Shown piece after piece: positions 10,745-60,930 of a stretch of DNA of 64,000 bases (position 1 is the first letter of the stretch; each line of letters starts with the position of its first letter). The notes beneath the pieces are model-generated. The model saw nothing but the letters and a program-made list of their open reading frames with translations, did not search any database and was not told the origin of the DNA. Source of the stretch: a virus. Location of the stretch: positions 124,001 to 188,000 of the IMG/VR virus record IMGVR_UViG_3300036985_002246; one strand, 5' to 3'. The translations under genes were made by a program, and so were the position numbers.

Positions 10745-11151
10745 GGGCTCGTCACGGTTTCGACGGGGTGTTCTACGACTGTGCTGCGTGTCCCGGTTGG
10801 TCTGCTCGCCGGGTAAAAAGCAGACCAAACATAGCTGCGAACGACAACAGCTACGCCTCAGCCGCAATCGCGGCCTGAAGCCGTTGACGAGGAGAGTCCG
10901 CCTAACACTCTCCTCGTTGGCGTAATCGAGTTGGGCGAAAATCCCGGACGTACTTCAGCGGGAGCCGAAAGGCGATCTGAGGAACTGGTGGAGGGCAATC
11001 GGGCAACCGTGAGCCCCTCGGGGAGTCCCGAAAGGGAGAGGTCGTCGGGCCTCGTGCTTTCCTCGTATCAAAACAGGCACGGACTTCGGCTACGCACGTA
11101 GACGCACAGAAGAAGGCATTCCGGACGCGGGTTCGACTCCCGCCGAGTCCA
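10745..11151 (+). ncRNA. ssrA: Transfer-messenger RNA (tmRNA)
   Basis: The 5' acceptor strand GGGCTCG (10745-10751) pairs with CGAGTCC (11144-11150), with a G-U at the third pair, the alanine identity signal. A T-arm GCGGG-TTCGACT-CCCGC lies at 11127-11143, and discriminator A is 11151. CCA is not encoded. GGTTTCGACGGGG near the 5' end is the usual tmRNA signature. The first pseudoknot stem GGTCTGC/GCAGACC precedes the tag, and GAGGAGAGT/ACTCTCCTC follows its stop. The reading frame encodes ANDNSYASAAIAA. It would release stalled ribosomes and mark products for degradation. No SmpB gene is seen here, so host SmpB would be needed. Confidence 0.95.
10837..10878 (+). other. tmRNA proteolysis-tag reading frame
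   Basis: The frame starts at GCG 10837, five bases after a TAG in ATAGCTGCG, and reads ANDNSYASAAIAA then TGA (10876-10878). The start ANDN and the small hydrophobic end IAA match the general form of degradation tags. Confidence 0.85.
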
Positions 11152-11157
11152 CAAGTG

Positions 11158-37590: not shown

Positions 37591-37630
37591 GGATCGTGTA
37601 AAAGGGACCTCCCCACCCGCTTCATGGGTG
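37591..37630 (+). promoter_or_regulatory. Promoter-like intergenic repeat, copy 1
   Basis: GGATCGTGTAAAAGGG, then CCACCCGCTTCATGGGTG. It shares its layout with copies at 38903, 39382 and 44571. CACCC/GGGTG could form a small hairpin. It lies in the 122-base divergent gap and 14 bases before ATG 37645. Confidence 0.55.
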
Positions 37631-38327: not shown

Positions 38328-38591
38328 ATGGCCGACAAGAGAACAGTTCCGGCGTTCGCAGTCTTCCTCTCCGGCATTTTCATGCACGGCAAGGAAGAGC
38401 CCAACTCCAACTTCGGGGCGCTCGGGCCGCTCGCGGTGTTCGCACGCGAGATCGACGCCAAAAACTACGTCAAGTGTGGCCGGAGGCAGGGGTTCCTTCC
38501 CCCAGGTAAGGGGAAGGGTCTCCCGAAGGTCACAATCGTTCAGGTCGAGATCGCAGTCCCGGAGGCAGCGTTCTCCCCTGAGTGGTTGTGA
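38328..38591 (+). CDS. Small hypothetical protein
   Basis: An 87-residue protein (VPAFAVFLSGIFMHGKEEP, GPLAVFAREIDAKNYVKCG, KVTIVQVEIAVPEAAF) with alternating strands and a helix. GGAACC precedes ATG 38328. It lies between a small protein gene and a lipoprotein gene. No family is recognised. Confidence 0.5.
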   Translation: MADKRTVPAFAVFLSGIFMHGKEEPNSNFGALGPLAVFAREIDAKNYVKCGRRQGFLPPGKGKGLPKVTIVQVEIAVPEAAFSPEWL

Positions 38592-38623
38592 CCTGCTTGA
38601 TCCGCCTATCGGCCTGCTCCCGT

Positions 38624-38896
38624 ATGACTTCCCTCAAGCTCGCTCTCCTTCTCGCTCTCTCAATCACAGTTCTCGGCTGCGACTCCACGCCCGCCCCCAC
38701 GCCCGTGGACGCAGCCGTGGTGGTGGACGCTGGCGACCTCTCCGACGCAGCCGACGTTGGTGTTGCTGACGACGCAGCGGCTGACGACTCTGGCACCGTC
38801 GAGGACGCAGGCACCGTCGAGGACGCTGCGGTCGCGGACGACGCAGGGTCAGTCGAGGACGCTGGCGAGATCGACGCGGCGACCGACGCAGGTTGA
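38624..38896 (+). CDS. Short lipoprotein made only of an Asp-Ala stalk
   Basis: A 90-residue protein: signal MTSLKLALLLALSITVLGC (C19 is the lipid anchor) and then an Asp/Ala/Gly/Val-rich stalk (VDAGDLSDAADVGVADDAA, EDAGTVEDAAVADDAG) with no folded domain. Such stalks are common in Myxococcota lipoproteins. It may be a remnant that lost its head domain, or an acidic surface coat, for example against superinfection; both are guesses. ATG 38624 starts the signal. Confidence 0.6.
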   Translation: MTSLKLALLLALSITVLGCDSTPAPTPVDAAVVVDAGDLSDAADVGVADDAAADDSGTVEDAGTVEDAAVADDAGSVEDAGEIDAATDAG

Positions 38897-39433: not shown

Positions 39434-40243
39434 ATGCGCTACAGATACATGATCGTCTCGGCCCTACTCCTGTGGGCCACCCCCCTGCAAGCACAGGCTC
39501 CGACGCCTCTCGAAGAGGCTCGTGCTCTCTTTGCTAGGGGCGACACGGCGTTCAACGAAGCTCGGTGGATCGATTGCGCCCACCTGTTCGAGCGGAGCTT
39601 CACGATCGCTTTCCGCCCCGAGCTTCTCTACAACGTCGGCCTCTGCTACCAGCGGGCGGCGGGTGCTCTGCCGGACGAGCAGGCTGCACCGCTCCTGGGC
39701 CGGGCGGTGGCTGCCTTCCGGCGCTACCTGCGCGAGGTTCCTGCTGCGACCAACGCGGAGCGGGTCCAGACGGCGGTGGCCGACATTCAGGCTCGGCTCG
39801 ACAGCATGGACCCCGCTGTCAGCCCAGTCACGGAGGTCACTGCACCGCCTGTGAGGGAGGTCGCTCCGGTCGTACCTGAACCTGACTCGGTGGTTGTGGG
39901 GGACCCAATCCCCACGCCAGCGCCCGTGACGGTGGCCCGCAACGACTACACGCTCACGATCGTCACGGGGGCGTTGACCCTCGTCTCGACGGCACTCGCA
40001 ATCGGGCTTGGACTCCACGCGCAGTCGCTCTACTCGGACCTCTCCTCGACGTGCGGTCAGACCCCGGCAGGTTGCAACGAAGCTCGGATCTCGGAGGTAG
40101 GCTCGTACTCGCTCGCCACGAACCTCCTGTGGGTCGTCTCTGGTCTTGCCCTTGTCGGAACTTCAATCAGCTTCGCAATCGAGTTCACAGCGACAGACAC
40201 GCGACCCTCCTTGGTCGCCCTCACGGTGGGAAGGACCTTCTGA
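39434..40243 (+). CDS. Secreted TPR-type membrane protein, myxobacteria-like
   Basis: A 269-residue protein with a Sec signal (MIVSALLLWATPLQAQA). A tetratricopeptide-like helical region covers about residues 25-120 (EEARALFARGDTAFNEARW, PELLYNVGLCYQRA, AAFRRYLREVPAATN). A Pro/Val linker and two hydrophobic segments (IVTGALTLVSTALAIGLGL, LLWVVSGLALVGTSISF) follow. This architecture is frequent in Myxococcota. ATG 39434 with GGAGG upstream is preferred over GTG 39419. Its stop overlaps the next lipoprotein start. Probably a host-derived surface modifier. Confidence 0.65.
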   Translation: MRYRYMIVSALLLWATPLQAQAPTPLEEARALFARGDTAFNEARWIDCAHLFERSFTIAFRPELLYNVGLCYQRAAGALPDEQAAPLLGRAVAAFRRYLREVPAATNAERVQTAVADIQARLDSMDPAVSPVTEVTAPPVREVAPVVPEPDSVVVGDPIPTPAPVTVARNDYTLTIVTGALTLVSTALAIGLGLHAQSLYSDLSSTCGQTPAGCNEARISEVGSYSLATNLLWVVSGLALVGTSISFAIEFTATDTRPSLVALTVGRTF

Positions 40244-40770
40244 TGCGCTACCTACTGACGACGGTCCTGATCCTCACGTCCGGGTGTGCCTTCGACGTTG
40301 CAGGGCTTCATGGAACGGGAGTGCTCGACGACGCTGGCCCAATGACGGGCGATACTGGTCCTGAAGTGGACGCAGGCTCCGAAGTGGACGCAGGTCCAAC
40401 GCTCGTGGACTCCGGTTCCGAAACCGACGCAGGACTGGACTCTGGATCTGACGTGGACTCCGGCTCAACTGAGGACGGGGGTTCAACCGGGCCGACTTGC
40501 TGCCTGCCAGAGCGTGTCCTGCCCTCACCTGTACCCTGTCACCTGTTCACGGACGGCACGTCTGACTGCTGCGACGGGCTCCTGTGCTACGGCAGCGGTG
40601 GGTGCGTGCTGCCCACTGGTGGTGGTGGACGGCTTGGCTCCCTATGTCTTGACGGAGGCGACGGTCCCGACGGCGGGCGTCTGCTGCTCTGTGTCACGGC
40701 GACCACTTGCAACATGGACACTGGAATGTGCGTCGTGGACCCCACGCACGTCACCCTGCTTCAGTGCTAG
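40243..40770 (+). CDS. Lipoprotein with Asp/Gly stalk and Cys-rich domain
   Basis: A 175-residue protein. The signal ends LTSGC (C15). An Asp/Ala/Gly/Ser-rich stalk (about residues 25-85: VDAGSEVDAGPTLVDSGSE) leads to a Cys-rich head with some thirteen cysteines (TCCLPERV, DCCDGLLCYGSGGC, TTCNMDTGMCVV), probably a disulfide-bonded module. This is the third surface lipoprotein in 7 kb. ATG 40243 overlaps the previous TGA. A surface-exposed binding or exclusion role is inferred. Confidence 0.65.
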   Translation: MRYLLTTVLILTSGCAFDVAGLHGTGVLDDAGPMTGDTGPEVDAGSEVDAGPTLVDSGSETDAGLDSGSDVDSGSTEDGGSTGPTCCLPERVLPSPVPCHLFTDGTSDCCDGLLCYGSGGCVLPTGGGGRLGSLCLDGGDGPDGGRLLLCVTATTCNMDTGMCVVDPTHVTLLQC

Positions 40771-40792: not shown

Positions 40793-41488
40793 ATGAAGAC
40801 CAAGTACCCTCGGACCTTCCACCTCCCGTGGAGTGAAGGCGCGACCGACGACGACAAGACGCATGACCAGGAGACCGTCGAGCGAATGTTCGGCGGCAAG
40901 CAGGTCATTGTCACCGAGAAAATGGACGGGGAGAACACCACGATCTACTCGACGGGGGAGTGCCATGCGCGGAGCCTCGACTCGGCTGGACACGCCTCGC
41001 GGGACTACGTTCGCGGCAAGGCCCGTGAGGTGGGCTGCGCAGGGTTCCCTGAGGGTTGGCGTCTCATGGGGGAGAACCTCTACGCCAAGCACTCAATCGA
41101 GTACGACCTGCTCCCCGACTACTTCGTGGTCTTCGGGGTTGCAGACGCCTCGAACATGGCTCGGCCCTGGTCTGAGGTCGAGGAATGGGCAGACCTTCTG
41201 GGCCTGCCCGCTGCGCCTGTTCTCTGGCAGGGCACCTGGGACACGAAGAAGGTCATGTCCCTCTACCCGTTCAAGTCCCTTCTGACCTCCACCGGAACGA
41301 GCGAGGGGTACGTCGTGAGGGTCGCGGGCTCATTCCCAATGAGCAGCTTCGACAAGCACGTCGCGAAGTTCGTGCGGGCCAAGCACGTTCAGACGGACCA
41401 ACACTGGATGCACCAGCAGGTCACGCCCAACAAGCGCGTCACGACCTCGGCTGAGCAGGTCGTGGAGAGAGTTCTTGGCTCTCGCTAG
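40793..41488 (+). CDS. RNA ligase, Rnl2-like
   Basis: A 231-residue protein of the nucleotidyltransferase ligase superfamily. Motif I is TEKMDGENTT with candidate nucleophile K43; RLMGENLYAKHSI, EGYVVR (171-176, motif IV) and KFVRAKHV (motif V) follow. Its length and the sequence after motif V resemble small Rnl2-type ligases that seal nicked RNA. GGAGG precedes ATG 40793. With the P-loop kinase at 38943 it could form an RNA-repair pair. A perfect 17-bp hairpin follows the stop. Confidence 0.75.
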   Translation: MKTKYPRTFHLPWSEGATDDDKTHDQETVERMFGGKQVIVTEKMDGENTTIYSTGECHARSLDSAGHASRDYVRGKAREVGCAGFPEGWRLMGENLYAKHSIEYDLLPDYFVVFGVADASNMARPWSEVEEWADLLGLPAAPVLWQGTWDTKKVMSLYPFKSLLTSTGTSEGYVVRVAGSFPMSSFDKHVAKFVRAKHVQTDQHWMHQQVTPNKRVTTSAEQVVERVLGSR

Positions 41489-41530
41489 GGCTCCTATCCA
41501 GGTCGCAGATTGTGACCTGGATAGGAGCCC
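41488..41530 (+). terminator. Long hairpin after RNA ligase gene
   Basis: GGGCTCCTATCCAGGTC (41488-41504) pairs perfectly with 41514-41530, with a 9-base loop. There is no T tract; CCTCTCC follows. Probably a terminator or RNA-processing hairpin. Confidence 0.65.
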
Positions 41531-41571: not shown

Positions 41572-41955
41572 ATGAGCCGCCCCCGATCCCCACCGCCCCC
41601 GGCCCCCTACGTGGTCGAGTTCTGGCGGGAGACAGTCAAGCGCGGAGGGGCCTTCGCAACTGTTCCCGGTGGTCGCGTCCTCCGGCACGGTCGCCGGTAC
41701 GTCCCGCATTTCCGTGGACCCAGCACTCAGAGCGTAGACCCGAACACGTTCTATATGTCAGAGTTCTCCTCTGCACGGGCGCGGCCTTGGCAGAAGTTCC
41801 GGGTGTGTTACTACAACCCCCTGACGGGTGCTCGGTCGGCTCTGTCGGCTGAGACGATTGTTGTGATTGGTACTGCTTCGACAGACCAGATCCGCACCTA
41901 CGGGGTAGGGCGGAACCCGGCGCACGTCGCTGGCTCGGTGGTGATCAAGCGGTAG
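41572..41955 (+). CDS. Small hypothetical basic protein
   Basis: A 127-residue protein with a Pro-rich start, then basic beta segments (GGRVLRHGRRYVPHFRG, WQKFRVCYYNPLTGARSAL). No family is recognised. Its stop is immediately followed by the large folded element at 41956. Confidence 0.5.
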   Translation: MSRPRSPPPPAPYVVEFWRETVKRGGAFATVPGGRVLRHGRRYVPHFRGPSTQSVDPNTFYMSEFSSARARPWQKFRVCYYNPLTGARSALSAETIVVIGTASTDQIRTYGVGRNPAHVAGSVVIKR

Positions 41956-42062
41956 ATTGGAAGTGGACCCCTGCTACGGTGGCTTCAAGGTTGCCCTCTG
42001 GCAGCCTCAAAGTGTCCCCCCGGAGACTTCAAAGCCACCCTAGGAGGGGTTCACTTCCCAAT
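41956..42062 (+). other. Large Y-shaped folded RNA/DNA element in the VWA gene leader
   Basis: The arms 41956-41985 and 42032-42062 pair almost continuously (about 26 pairs with a few mismatches and a G-U). The stem opens into two hairpins: GGTTGCC-CTCT-GGCAGCC (41989-42006) and GTGTCC-CCCC-GGAGAC (42012-42027, one mismatch). CTTCAA/CTCAAAG/CTTCAAAG joins the three arms. It starts on the base after a stop codon and ends 56 bases before ATG 42119. There is no T tract. It looks like a three-way-junction RNA, or a cruciform in DNA. Function unknown. Confidence 0.65.
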
Positions 42063-42118
42063 CATTGGGGGCTAGGTCAGGTTCTCGGGCCGGTGCGTAA
42101 AGATCCCACAGAGGATCA

Positions 42119-44572
42119 ATGCCCACCACCGAAAACACAAAGTTCTCCCTTCGCAACTTCTCCGGCAAGCCCACCAAGCACTTCCGCGTCGAGCGGGACG
42201 ACCTGACGGGCCAGGCCCCTGTCGCCAAGAAGACGCCCTCCCACCACATTCTCGTGGTGGACCGGTCGGGCTCCATGTACGGCGACCTCCCCGACCTGAA
42301 GACCATGGTCGAGAAGCTCCTGACGCTCGGCGAGTTCGACGACCCGACGCTCCGGGTCAGCCTCGTCAGCTACTCGTCCCAGGGTGACGTGAAGCTCCAC
42401 TTCAGCCGCGTCACCGTCGCCGACGTGATGAAAGCGTCGAGCCCGTACCTCAAGGAGATCCGTGCGATCCGTGCGACCGCCATGACCTGTATCTCCCAGG
42501 GGCTCGTCATGGCCGAGACGGTGATCGACGACAAGGAGACGACCTGCGTCACCCTCCACACGGACGGCTTCGCGAACGACGCCTCCCCGTCGGCAGAGGC
42601 CCGCACGATCGCTGCGACCGTCGAGAAGCTCAAGAAGCACCCCAACCTCTTCGTCAACACGATCGCCTACCGCGACTGGTGCGACTTCAATCTGCTCTCC
42701 TCGATCAGCAACGCGCTCTCCGGCGCGTGTATCCAGGCCAAGAGTATCAAGCAGGTCTACGAGGCGCTCTACAACGCGACGGCGCTGCTCGCGGGCTCCA
42801 TGGCCCCGGCGATCGAGGCGTCGGTCGGCAACGCCGACTATATTGCCTTCGTCTCCAAGTCCGCCCGCAAGGTGCTTGGGTCGGAGGACAACCTCGTGGT
42901 CCGTGGTCTCGGCTCGACCGACGACCGCTCGGTCTACCGCTACTTCGAGGTCACGGAGGCTGAGTACGCGAAGCTCTCGTGCCCCGAGACGCTCGGCTCG
43001 GCGTCGGCGGACGCAATCGCGACCTACTGCCGGGCGCAGATCAGCGAGGGCCACCACAACACGGCCAAGTACGCGCTCGTCGCCATGAAGAGCGACACGC
43101 TCCTGAACTCGCACTACCGGGCGCTCGTCTCGTCGGACGTGGCGACCTTCGCGGGTGCGGTCGAGGACACGCTGTTCTCGGCCACGGCGTACCCGCTGGC
43201 TGCGGACTACGGCCTCGCGGCGAAGGGTCCGTCGGTTCTGAAGGTGCTCTCGGTCCTCGACCAGCACTCGAAGTCCCTGAGCGTCAACCTGAAGGTGCTG
43301 CTCGCTGGTTACAAGCGGCGCGGGCTCAAGAAGGTGCCTGGGGTTCGCCTCGAAGACGGTACGCTCCAGGTGCCGACCGTCGAGTCCCGCTACCGCACGG
43401 CGAACGAGGAGTGGGTCACGGTCAACGGGTTCGAGTTGAACCGCAACACGGCCACCGTGAATATGCTCGTCTCGCAGCCGATCGACCTCTTCCCGCACGG
43501 CGGGAACGCTCGGATCGCCTCCGTCTCCGGCGTGGGTCTGGACGGCCTCAAGTCGTTCAACAACTACACGCTCGTGAGCGACGGCTCGCTGAACGTGGGG
43601 CAGATCATGCTCAAGACCTCGGACAAGCGGTGCTTCCGCGAACTGAAGGACCTGGGCGTCGTCACGGGTGAGTACGCTCCGGGCGTGGTCTTCGCGATCG
43701 ACTTCTCGAACCTCCCGCTCGTGGACTTCGAGGCGAGCTTCGACACGGTGGCCCCGGACGAGGTTCGTGACCTCGCGAAGCTCACGGTCCTCTCGAAGAT
43801 CCTCTCTGGCATGACCAAGGGGGAATCGACGGCCATGACTTCGGAGCAGATCGCCGAACTCAAGAAGCACTACCTGACCCCGGCGCTCTACTTCTCGCCC
43901 CCGACGACCGGAGAGCACGCCAATCTCCAGGACGCAATCGCCCAGGGCAAGATCGACACGCGGCTCTCGTACAAGATCGACGTGGGTATCCCGGCGCTGA
44001 CCTCGGTGTCGAAGCTGAAGTCGGGCAACGAGTACCTCCAGCGTCGGTTCACGTCGTCGTTCCACGGCAAGCCGGTCGAGAAGTCGAACCTCCAGGAGAT
44101 CCTCCTCCCCGGCACGACCTGGGAGGTGAAGAAGCTCACCGCCCGCACCCAACTCGACGAGGTGGACGCCCTCTCGTTCCCAATCTACGAGGGTGTCCTC
44201 GGGACCGGGGCGACCGCCGAAGTCGAGCGCGTCCTCAAGCTCGCCGGACACGAGGACCCCAAGGGCTTCCTCAAGAGCCTCTCGGGTGACCACGAGGCTG
44301 CGGTCGCCTCGGTCACGGACGCGCTGCGGCTCGTGGACGGCATGATCGAGTCGTTCTACGACCGGATCCGCCCCCTCGCCTTCTACATTGGGGCAACCGG
44401 GCTGGTCCCGGATTCGCTCAATGCGAAGGCGTCCGCTGCCGAAGCGTTCGCGACGCAGTTTCCGGAGGCCAAGCTCTCGAAGGCGGAGAAGGAGGACGGC
44501 ACCTTCTTCACGCTCCCGAACGGGCTCGTGGTGACGGTGTTCGTGAAGGGCGAGTACTTCACGGTCTCCTGA
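42119..44572 (+). CDS. Large VWA-domain protein
   Basis: An 817-residue protein. Residues 40-215 are a von Willebrand A domain with a full metal site (MIDAS): VVDRSGSM, a threonine in IRATAMTCISQG, and HTDGFAND. The next 600 residues are mixed alpha/beta without recognised motifs (VRGLGSTDDRSVYRYFEVTE, LVSDGSLNVGQIMLKT). VWA proteins mediate metal-dependent protein binding, often with AAA+ ATPases; none is adjacent. Strong codon bias, only one GATG and no CATC suggest long residence in this genome and high expression. Behind the folded leader at 41956. No signal peptide, so cytoplasmic. Confidence 0.75.
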   Translation: MPTTENTKFSLRNFSGKPTKHFRVERDDLTGQAPVAKKTPSHHILVVDRSGSMYGDLPDLKTMVEKLLTLGEFDDPTLRVSLVSYSSQGDVKLHFSRVTVADVMKASSPYLKEIRAIRATAMTCISQGLVMAETVIDDKETTCVTLHTDGFANDASPSAEARTIAATVEKLKKHPNLFVNTIAYRDWCDFNLLSSISNALSGACIQAKSIKQVYEALYNATALLAGSMAPAIEASVGNADYIAFVSKSARKVLGSEDNLVVRGLGSTDDRSVYRYFEVTEAEYAKLSCPETLGSASADAIATYCRAQISEGHHNTAKYALVAMKSDTLLNSHYRALVSSDVATFAGAVEDTLFSATAYPLAADYGLAAKGPSVLKVLSVLDQHSKSLSVNLKVLLAGYKRRGLKKVPGVRLEDGTLQVPTVESRYRTANEEWVTVNGFELNRNTATVNMLVSQPIDLFPHGGNARIASVSGVGLDGLKSFNNYTLVSDGSLNVGQIMLKTSDKRCFRELKDLGVVTGEYAPGVVFAIDFSNLPLVDFEASFDTVAPDEVRDLAKLTVLSKILSGMTKGESTAMTSEQIAELKKHYLTPALYFSPPTTGEHANLQDAIAQGKIDTRLSYKIDVGIPALTSVSKLKSGNEYLQRRFTSSFHGKPVEKSNLQEILLPGTTWEVKKLTARTQLDEVDALSFPIYEGVLGTGATAEVERVLKLAGHEDPKGFLKSLSGDHEAAVASVTDALRLVDGMIESFYDRIRPLAFYIGATGLVPDSLNAKASAAEAFATQFPEAKLSKAEKEDGTFFTLPNGLVVTVFVKGEYFTVS

Positions 44573-44610
44573 ATCGTGAAGTGTCCGGGTCCCCAATCGC
44601 TTCCAGGGTG
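44571..44610 (+). promoter_or_regulatory. Promoter-like intergenic repeat, copy 4
   Basis: GAATCGTGAAGTGTCCGGG, then CAATCGCTTCCAGGGTG. The most divergent copy. It overlaps the VWA gene stop and lies 11 bases before ATG 44622; GGGTCC/GGACCC can pair around it. Confidence 0.45.
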
Positions 44611-44621
44611 AGGACCCAGAC

Positions 44622-44936
44622 ATGACACTGCGAGAGAAGCCAGAAGCAGGCTGGAACCCGCGATTCGTACTGTGGTGCGAGTCTCGCGGCTTCCAGCCTG
44701 ATTCGTTTGACCGGGCTGAGGGCGAGGACATGAAGCTCGTCGAGCATGGCGACGGGAAGCAGTATCCGTGGACGCTCGTGTTCTCCGACTGGATCAAAGC
44801 CCAGTGGAAGGAGTGGGCTCACTCGATCGGGTTCAAGGACAGCAACTTCTGGCAAGCTCACCGGCTGGCCCAGGCTGCTGGTCACGGTCCCGCAGAGTTC
44901 GACGCCTGGCTTCGGCTGAAGGTCAAGGGAGCCTGA
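44622..44936 (+). CDS. Small hypothetical protein
   Basis: A 104-residue protein rich in Trp and charged residues (WNPRFVLWCESRGFQPD, PWTLVFSDWIKAQWKEW), probably all helical. It follows promoter-like copy 4 and directly precedes the methyltransferase-like gene. No family is recognised. Confidence 0.55.
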   Translation: MTLREKPEAGWNPRFVLWCESRGFQPDSFDRAEGEDMKLVEHGDGKQYPWTLVFSDWIKAQWKEWAHSIGFKDSNFWQAHRLAQAAGHGPAEFDAWLRLKVKGA

Positions 44937-60883: not shown

Positions 60884-60930
60884 GGTAGAGTACGGGGAGC
60901 CTGCGGGAACGCAGGCTCCCCGTATCCGTT
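60884..60930 (+). terminator. Terminator after tube gene, overlapping a GGTAGAG repeat
   Basis: TACGGGGAGCCTGCG (60891-60905) pairs perfectly with 60910-60924 around a GGAA loop; TCCGTTT follows. GGTAGAGTAC (60884-60893), a one-base variant of the -10-like repeat, overlaps its left edge, so termination and re-initiation may be combined. Confidence 0.8.

What the first reader, a model, noticed from the sequence alone, without database searches (positions are those of the whole stretch)
41956..42062. Y-shaped structured element ahead of the VWA gene
Two ~30-base arms pair almost fully and enclose two small hairpins, giving a three-way junction with repeated CUUCAA/CUCAAAG joints. It fills most of the gap between two genes, has no terminator tail and matches no RNA family I know. 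It could be a regulatory leader RNA, a processing site or a DNA cruciform.
Basis: seen in the sequence. Interest (0 to 1): 0.66.

Follow-up and report, generated by a model that had tools for sequence, protein, structure and literature searches.

The report
Y-shaped gene-end hairpin in a phage
Between two genes of an uncultured large phage there is a real, strongly folded Y-shaped RNA/DNA hairpin, but its closest relative lacks it, and it most likely marks the end of the upstream gene's message rather than switching the downstream gene.

Summary
Window 41955-42063 folds as a three-way junction: a 29-bp stem broken by two 1x1 mismatches and one bulge, plus two hairpins. Its energy is -68.9 kcal/mol against -35.4 +/- 3.7 for 1000 dinucleotide shuffles (z -9.1). 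The first stem base is the last base of the upstream stop codon. It is single-copy, matches no RNA family at threshold, and has no relative in the collections searched. The nearest related phage contig (VWA protein 88% identical) has no Y. There, another gene's stop codon is followed directly by the last 67 nt before the VWA start, 87% identical. So the conserved VWA leader (42052-42118) lies after the Y. It holds a small hairpin (42055-42071) whose stem differences between the two phages all keep pairing, and that hairpin cannot coexist with the Y's base. The phage has other strong hairpins at gene ends, gained or lost between relatives. Best reading: a lineage-specific 3'-end element (RNase III-type processing, mRNA-end protection or U-less termination) that arrived or was lost with the orphan gene orf127. 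A ribosome-sensed switch with the VWA leader is possible but untested. The surroundings, including a 21-copy promoter-like element, are as interesting as the Y itself.

The parts
41955..42063 (+). Y-shaped element: 29-bp stem with two 1x1 mismatches and one bulge, enclosing two hairpins (three-way junction)
41955..41985 (+). 5' arm; its first base is the last base of the orf127 stop codon TAG
   Evidence: sequence; fold
41988..42007 (+). hairpin 1 of the junction (8 bp, loop 4)
42010..42029 (+). hairpin 2 of the junction (7 bp with a 1x1 mismatch, loop 4)
42032..42063 (+). 3' arm; its last 12 nt (42052-42063) lie in the block conserved in the relative that lacks the Y
42055..42071 (+). small 7-bp hairpin, mutually exclusive with the Y's basal helix; all four stem differences to L002:3452-3468 keep pairing (one C-G to U-A double change)
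42052..42118 (+). VWA leader conserved in L002 (3449-3516, 87% identity) without the Y
42095..42100 (+). GCGTAA leader motif, strongly over-represented upstream of genes in this phage; promoter or translation-initiation signal, role not shown
   Evidence: similar hexamers ahead of VWA genes in L014, L015, L016, L023
42102..42117 (+). GATCC-CACAGA-GGATC small hairpin overlapping the VWA ribosome-binding region, arms kept in L002
41572..41955 (+). orf127, orphan upstream ORF with atypical codon-position GC; replaced by an unrelated ORF in L002
41488..41530 (+). 20-bp near-perfect hairpin right after the RNA ligase stop codon, also absent in L002
42119..44572 (+). VWA-domain protein gene
   Evidence: PF13519, PF00092

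Best explanation
The Y is a structured RNA at the 3' end of the orf127 message. It begins at the stop codon and folds once transcribed. It works as a double-stranded gene boundary: cut by RNase III or a similar nuclease and/or left as a protective 3' end (or acting as a U-less terminator), so that orf127 and VWA mRNA are produced and decay separately. VWA is expressed from its own conserved leader further downstream. Shown: the fold, its position, its absence in the nearest relative, conservation of the downstream leader, and the presence of other gene-end hairpins in this phage. Inferred: that it is transcribed, and the cutting, protection or termination.
For: Strong fold, better on the coding strand. 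[quoted passage not shown] The relative with 88% identical VWA lacks it while keeping 67 nt of leader. The other end of the same variable segment also has a stop-codon-abutting hairpin absent in the relative (41488-41530). Other co-directional gaps carry strong hairpins close after stops, e.g. record positions 42627 and 142269, and a gene-junction hairpin at window 60888-60927 is kept in the relative. An enriched leader motif lies between the Y and the VWA start. A stem over 20 bp suits RNase III (established knowledge of that enzyme).
Against: No RNA data. No U-tract. No second example of the Y, so no covariation test. Terminators a few bp after a stop codon are repressed by ribosomes in E. 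coli (PMC4824070), which weakens the plain terminator version. The downstream promoter is only a motif, not a mapped start site.
Confidence: 0.5

Rival explanations
1. Cis-regulatory switch of the VWA gene: the Y and the small conserved hairpin 42055-42071 compete, and a ribosome finishing orf127 covers the Y's 5' arm and lets the small hairpin form, tying VWA expression to orf127 translation.
For: The Y's basal helix and the small hairpin share bases 42055-42063; hiding the first 14 nt after the stop codon raises the central pairs of the small hairpin from 0 to about 0.9 probability. The small hairpin's pairing is kept through changes in L002.
Against: The effect depends on exactly how much is hidden: hiding five more bases drops it to about 0.05. 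L002 has the small hairpin without a Y or orf127. Neither structure traps the VWA start site.
Confidence: 0.15
2. DNA-level element: a quasi-palindrome from local inverted duplication, an insertion remnant, or a cruciform with a role in replication or recombination.
For: Both strands fold well. The element is present or absent between close relatives at a gene-replacement boundary. The 5' arm complements sequence conserved in the relative, as a template-switch copy would.
Against: Single copy, no relatives in phages or plasmids, no target-site duplication visible, and two G.U pairs favour the plus-strand RNA.
Confidence: 0.2
3. The Y is a leader RNA (riboswitch-like or protein-binding) controlling VWA directly.
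For: Complex multi-branched shape just upstream of VWA.
Against: Absent in the closest relative and not found ahead of more distant VWA homologues; no Rfam family at threshold.
Confidence: 0.08

Closest known systems
RNase III processing sites between phage genes (T7 early mRNA type; from general knowledge)
   Same: Long irregular double-stranded stem between co-directional genes, no U-tail
   Different: Three-way junction rather than one irregular hairpin; cutting not shown; host enzyme unknown
Rho-independent (intrinsic) terminator
   Same: GC-rich hairpin after a stop codon, other examples nearby
   Different: No U-tract; too large and branched; directly abuts the stop codon
REP/MITE-type palindromic elements
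   Same: Intergenic quasi-palindrome, present or absent between relatives
   Different: Single copy, no target duplication, no transposase-linked relatives found
attC sites of integrons
   Same: About 109-nt imperfect inverted repeat next to a small gene
   Different: No RYYYAAC/GTTRRRY ends, single site, no array or integrase seen

Membership tests
Intrinsic terminator | GC-rich hairpin | tested here: met
Intrinsic terminator | U-tract directly after the stem | tested here: not met
   sequence after 42063 is ATTGGGGGC
RNase III processing site | double-stranded stem of about two helical turns | tested here: met
   29 bp with small defects
RNase III processing site | cleavage by RNase III | not testable with these tools
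   needs RNA end mapping or in vitro cleavage
Known Rfam RNA family | score at or above the family's gathering threshold | tested here: not met
   best is MIR844 at 32 bits against a cut-off of 70, on both strands, a generic long-hairpin match
REP/MITE element | multiple copies | tested here: not met
   one copy; no relatives
attC site | terminal RYYYAAC and GTTRRRY boxes | tested here: not met
   arms end GATTGG / CCAATC
Conserved cis-regulatory RNA | pairing kept by covariation in homologues | tested here: inconclusive
   no homologous Y found; the covarying pairs seen belong to the small hairpin 42055-42071

The most novel reading that the evidence does not exclude
A ribosome-sensed RNA switch in a large phage: a three-way-junction fold starting at one gene's stop codon competes with a small conserved leader hairpin of the next gene, so that translation of the first sets expression of the second.
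Probability: 0.08. Interest if true: 0.55.

Novelty: new member of a known kind. Interest (0 to 1): 0.27.

Why it matters
If it is a processing or boundary element, it shows how an uncultured large phage separates the messages of neighbouring genes without ordinary U-tailed terminators, and how such boundaries come and go with gene replacement. The comparison also locates the conserved VWA leader and uncovers two phage-wide leader motifs that may be the phage's own expression signals.

Tried and rejected
Rfam at gathering and permissive thresholds: only MIR844-type hairpin resemblance. Blastn and pattern searches for other copies in the own record, phages, plasmids and viral contigs: none; one search's 16-base hit (L017) and searches's short hits in G004/G005 showed no Y fold. 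VWA profile in bacterial and archaeal genomes: none. orf127 homologues: none, so no test of an orf127-Y cassette. L026 has the ligase and VWA genes adjacent but divergent, so not comparable. A sigma-70 promoter or U-tailed terminator near the Y: none. I first treated GCGTAA as a promoter; because many copies merge into Shine-Dalgarno-like GTAAGG, I now leave its role open. The strong structures in divergent gaps 18860 and 60507 look like opposed copies of the AATCGTG element, not RNA folds like the Y.

Full report
What is there. The window is bases 124001-188000 of a 199,475-bp linear IMG/VR phage record. Between the stop codon of orf127 (TAG, 41953-41955) and the start of a VWA-domain gene (42119; PF13519 and PF00092) lie 163 nt. 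Of these, 41955-42063 fold as a three-way junction. The lower helix has 18 bp with one bulged C. It is followed by a G/G mismatch, 3 bp, a C/C mismatch and 8 bp, and the junction carries two hairpins. MFE is -68.9 kcal/mol against -35.4 +/- 3.7 in 1000 dinucleotide shuffles, z -9.1; the larger stretch 41930-42090 gives z -5.2. The minus strand is weaker. As DNA the strand also folds well (z -8.2).

How unusual it is. The element occurs once in the record, has no convincing blastn relative in 50,697 phage or 72,556 plasmid records and reaches no Rfam threshold. Among forward-strand 120-nt windows of the whole record it ranks ninth by energy, and fifth among 88 intergenic gaps by z-score. So it belongs to a small set of very strongly folded gene junctions in this phage. 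Other members are ordinary long hairpins, such as 41488-41530 right after the RNA ligase stop codon.

Comparison with relatives. The closest relative (L002/G001, a 37.7-kb contig, VWA 88% identical) keeps the order RNA ligase - small ORF - VWA, but the small ORF is unrelated. Its stop codon is followed directly by CACCTCTCAATCTTTGAGAGCTAGG..., the counterpart of window 42052 onward. Blastn places the homology at 42052-42118, 87% identical. Hence the Y, except its last 12 nt, is absent there, and so is the 20-bp hairpin before orf127. The other VWA relatives (L014, L015, L016, L022, L023; 52-62% identical) show no sequence match to the Y ahead of VWA; L015, L016 and L023 have their own, different, strongly folded upstream regions. 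The retained leader contains a small hairpin, 42055-42071. Of its five differences from L002, one is in the loop and four are in the stem, and all stem changes keep pairing: one C-G to U-A double change, U.G to C-G, and U.G to U-A. With two sequences this is modest evidence, but it is the only covariation found at this junction, and it supports a structure that cannot coexist with the Y's basal helix.

What it most likely does. The Y begins at the stop codon of orf127 and ends within the first bases of the conserved VWA leader. orf127 is an orphan with atypical codon-position GC (0.62/0.58/0.73 against 0.60/0.43/0.92 for VWA) and sits in a segment replaced in the relative. I read hairpin - orf127 - Y as a variable segment with structured gene ends. 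A 29-bp stem is a natural RNase III substrate and a good exonuclease block (general knowledge of these enzymes); an ordinary terminator is less likely because there is no U-tract and because ribosomes repress terminators placed a few bp after a stop codon in E. coli (PMC4824070). Transcription, cutting and protection are inferred.

The switch idea. Because the Y's base and the small hairpin exclude each other and the 5' arm starts at a stop codon, a terminating ribosome could choose between them. Folding with the first 14 nt after the stop codon hidden gives the central pairs of the small hairpin about 0.9 probability; with five more hidden another pairing takes over and it falls to about 0.05. 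The idea is not excluded but fragile.

Surroundings. GCGTAA occurs upstream of genes 15 times against 0.7 expected, GTGTAA 10 against 0.4. One copy lies at 42095 in the VWA leader, and similar hexamers precede VWA in L014, L015, L016 and L023. A second, longer element, AATCGTG[A/T]AAAG followed at nearly fixed spacing by CCCnnYCGCTT, occurs 21 times in the record against about 0.1 expected. Window copies are at 37593, 38906, 39384 and 44573, the last directly after VWA; three of these positions are also occupied in the relative. It looks like a phage promoter class, which suggests that VWA and its downstream genes are separate units.

Limits. Gene calls used for the record-wide counts are my own codon-model calls.

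Noticed in passing
window 37593, 38906, 39384, 44573 (+); 21 copies in the 199-kb record: Dispersed promoter-like element AATCGTG[A/T]AAAG-N8-CCCnnYCGCTT-N3-GGGTG shortly upstream of start codons, about 0.1 copies expected by chance; conserved at three orthologous positions in L110 (1091, 1575, 5976).
   Followed up: partly
window 42095 and about 25 intergenic sites in the record: GCGTAA/GTGTAA leader motif roughly 20-fold enriched upstream of genes; promoter, ribosome-binding or processing signal not resolved.
   Followed up: partly
window 10745-11154 (+): Phage-encoded tmRNA gene with tag ANDNSYASAAIAA.
   Followed up: no
window 44573-44625 and L110:5976-6025: The element after VWA also forms a hairpin over the next gene's ribosome-binding site, with a compensatory pair change between the two phages.
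   Followed up: partly
window 60888-60927: 18-bp hairpin between genes, preceded by GGTAGAGTAC and kept in the relative (G001 about 20701), unlike the Y.
   Followed up: no
window 38582-38896 and 40051-40770: Asp/Ala-rich lipoprotein-like ORFs that resemble bacterial surface proteins; may hint at the host.
   Followed up: no
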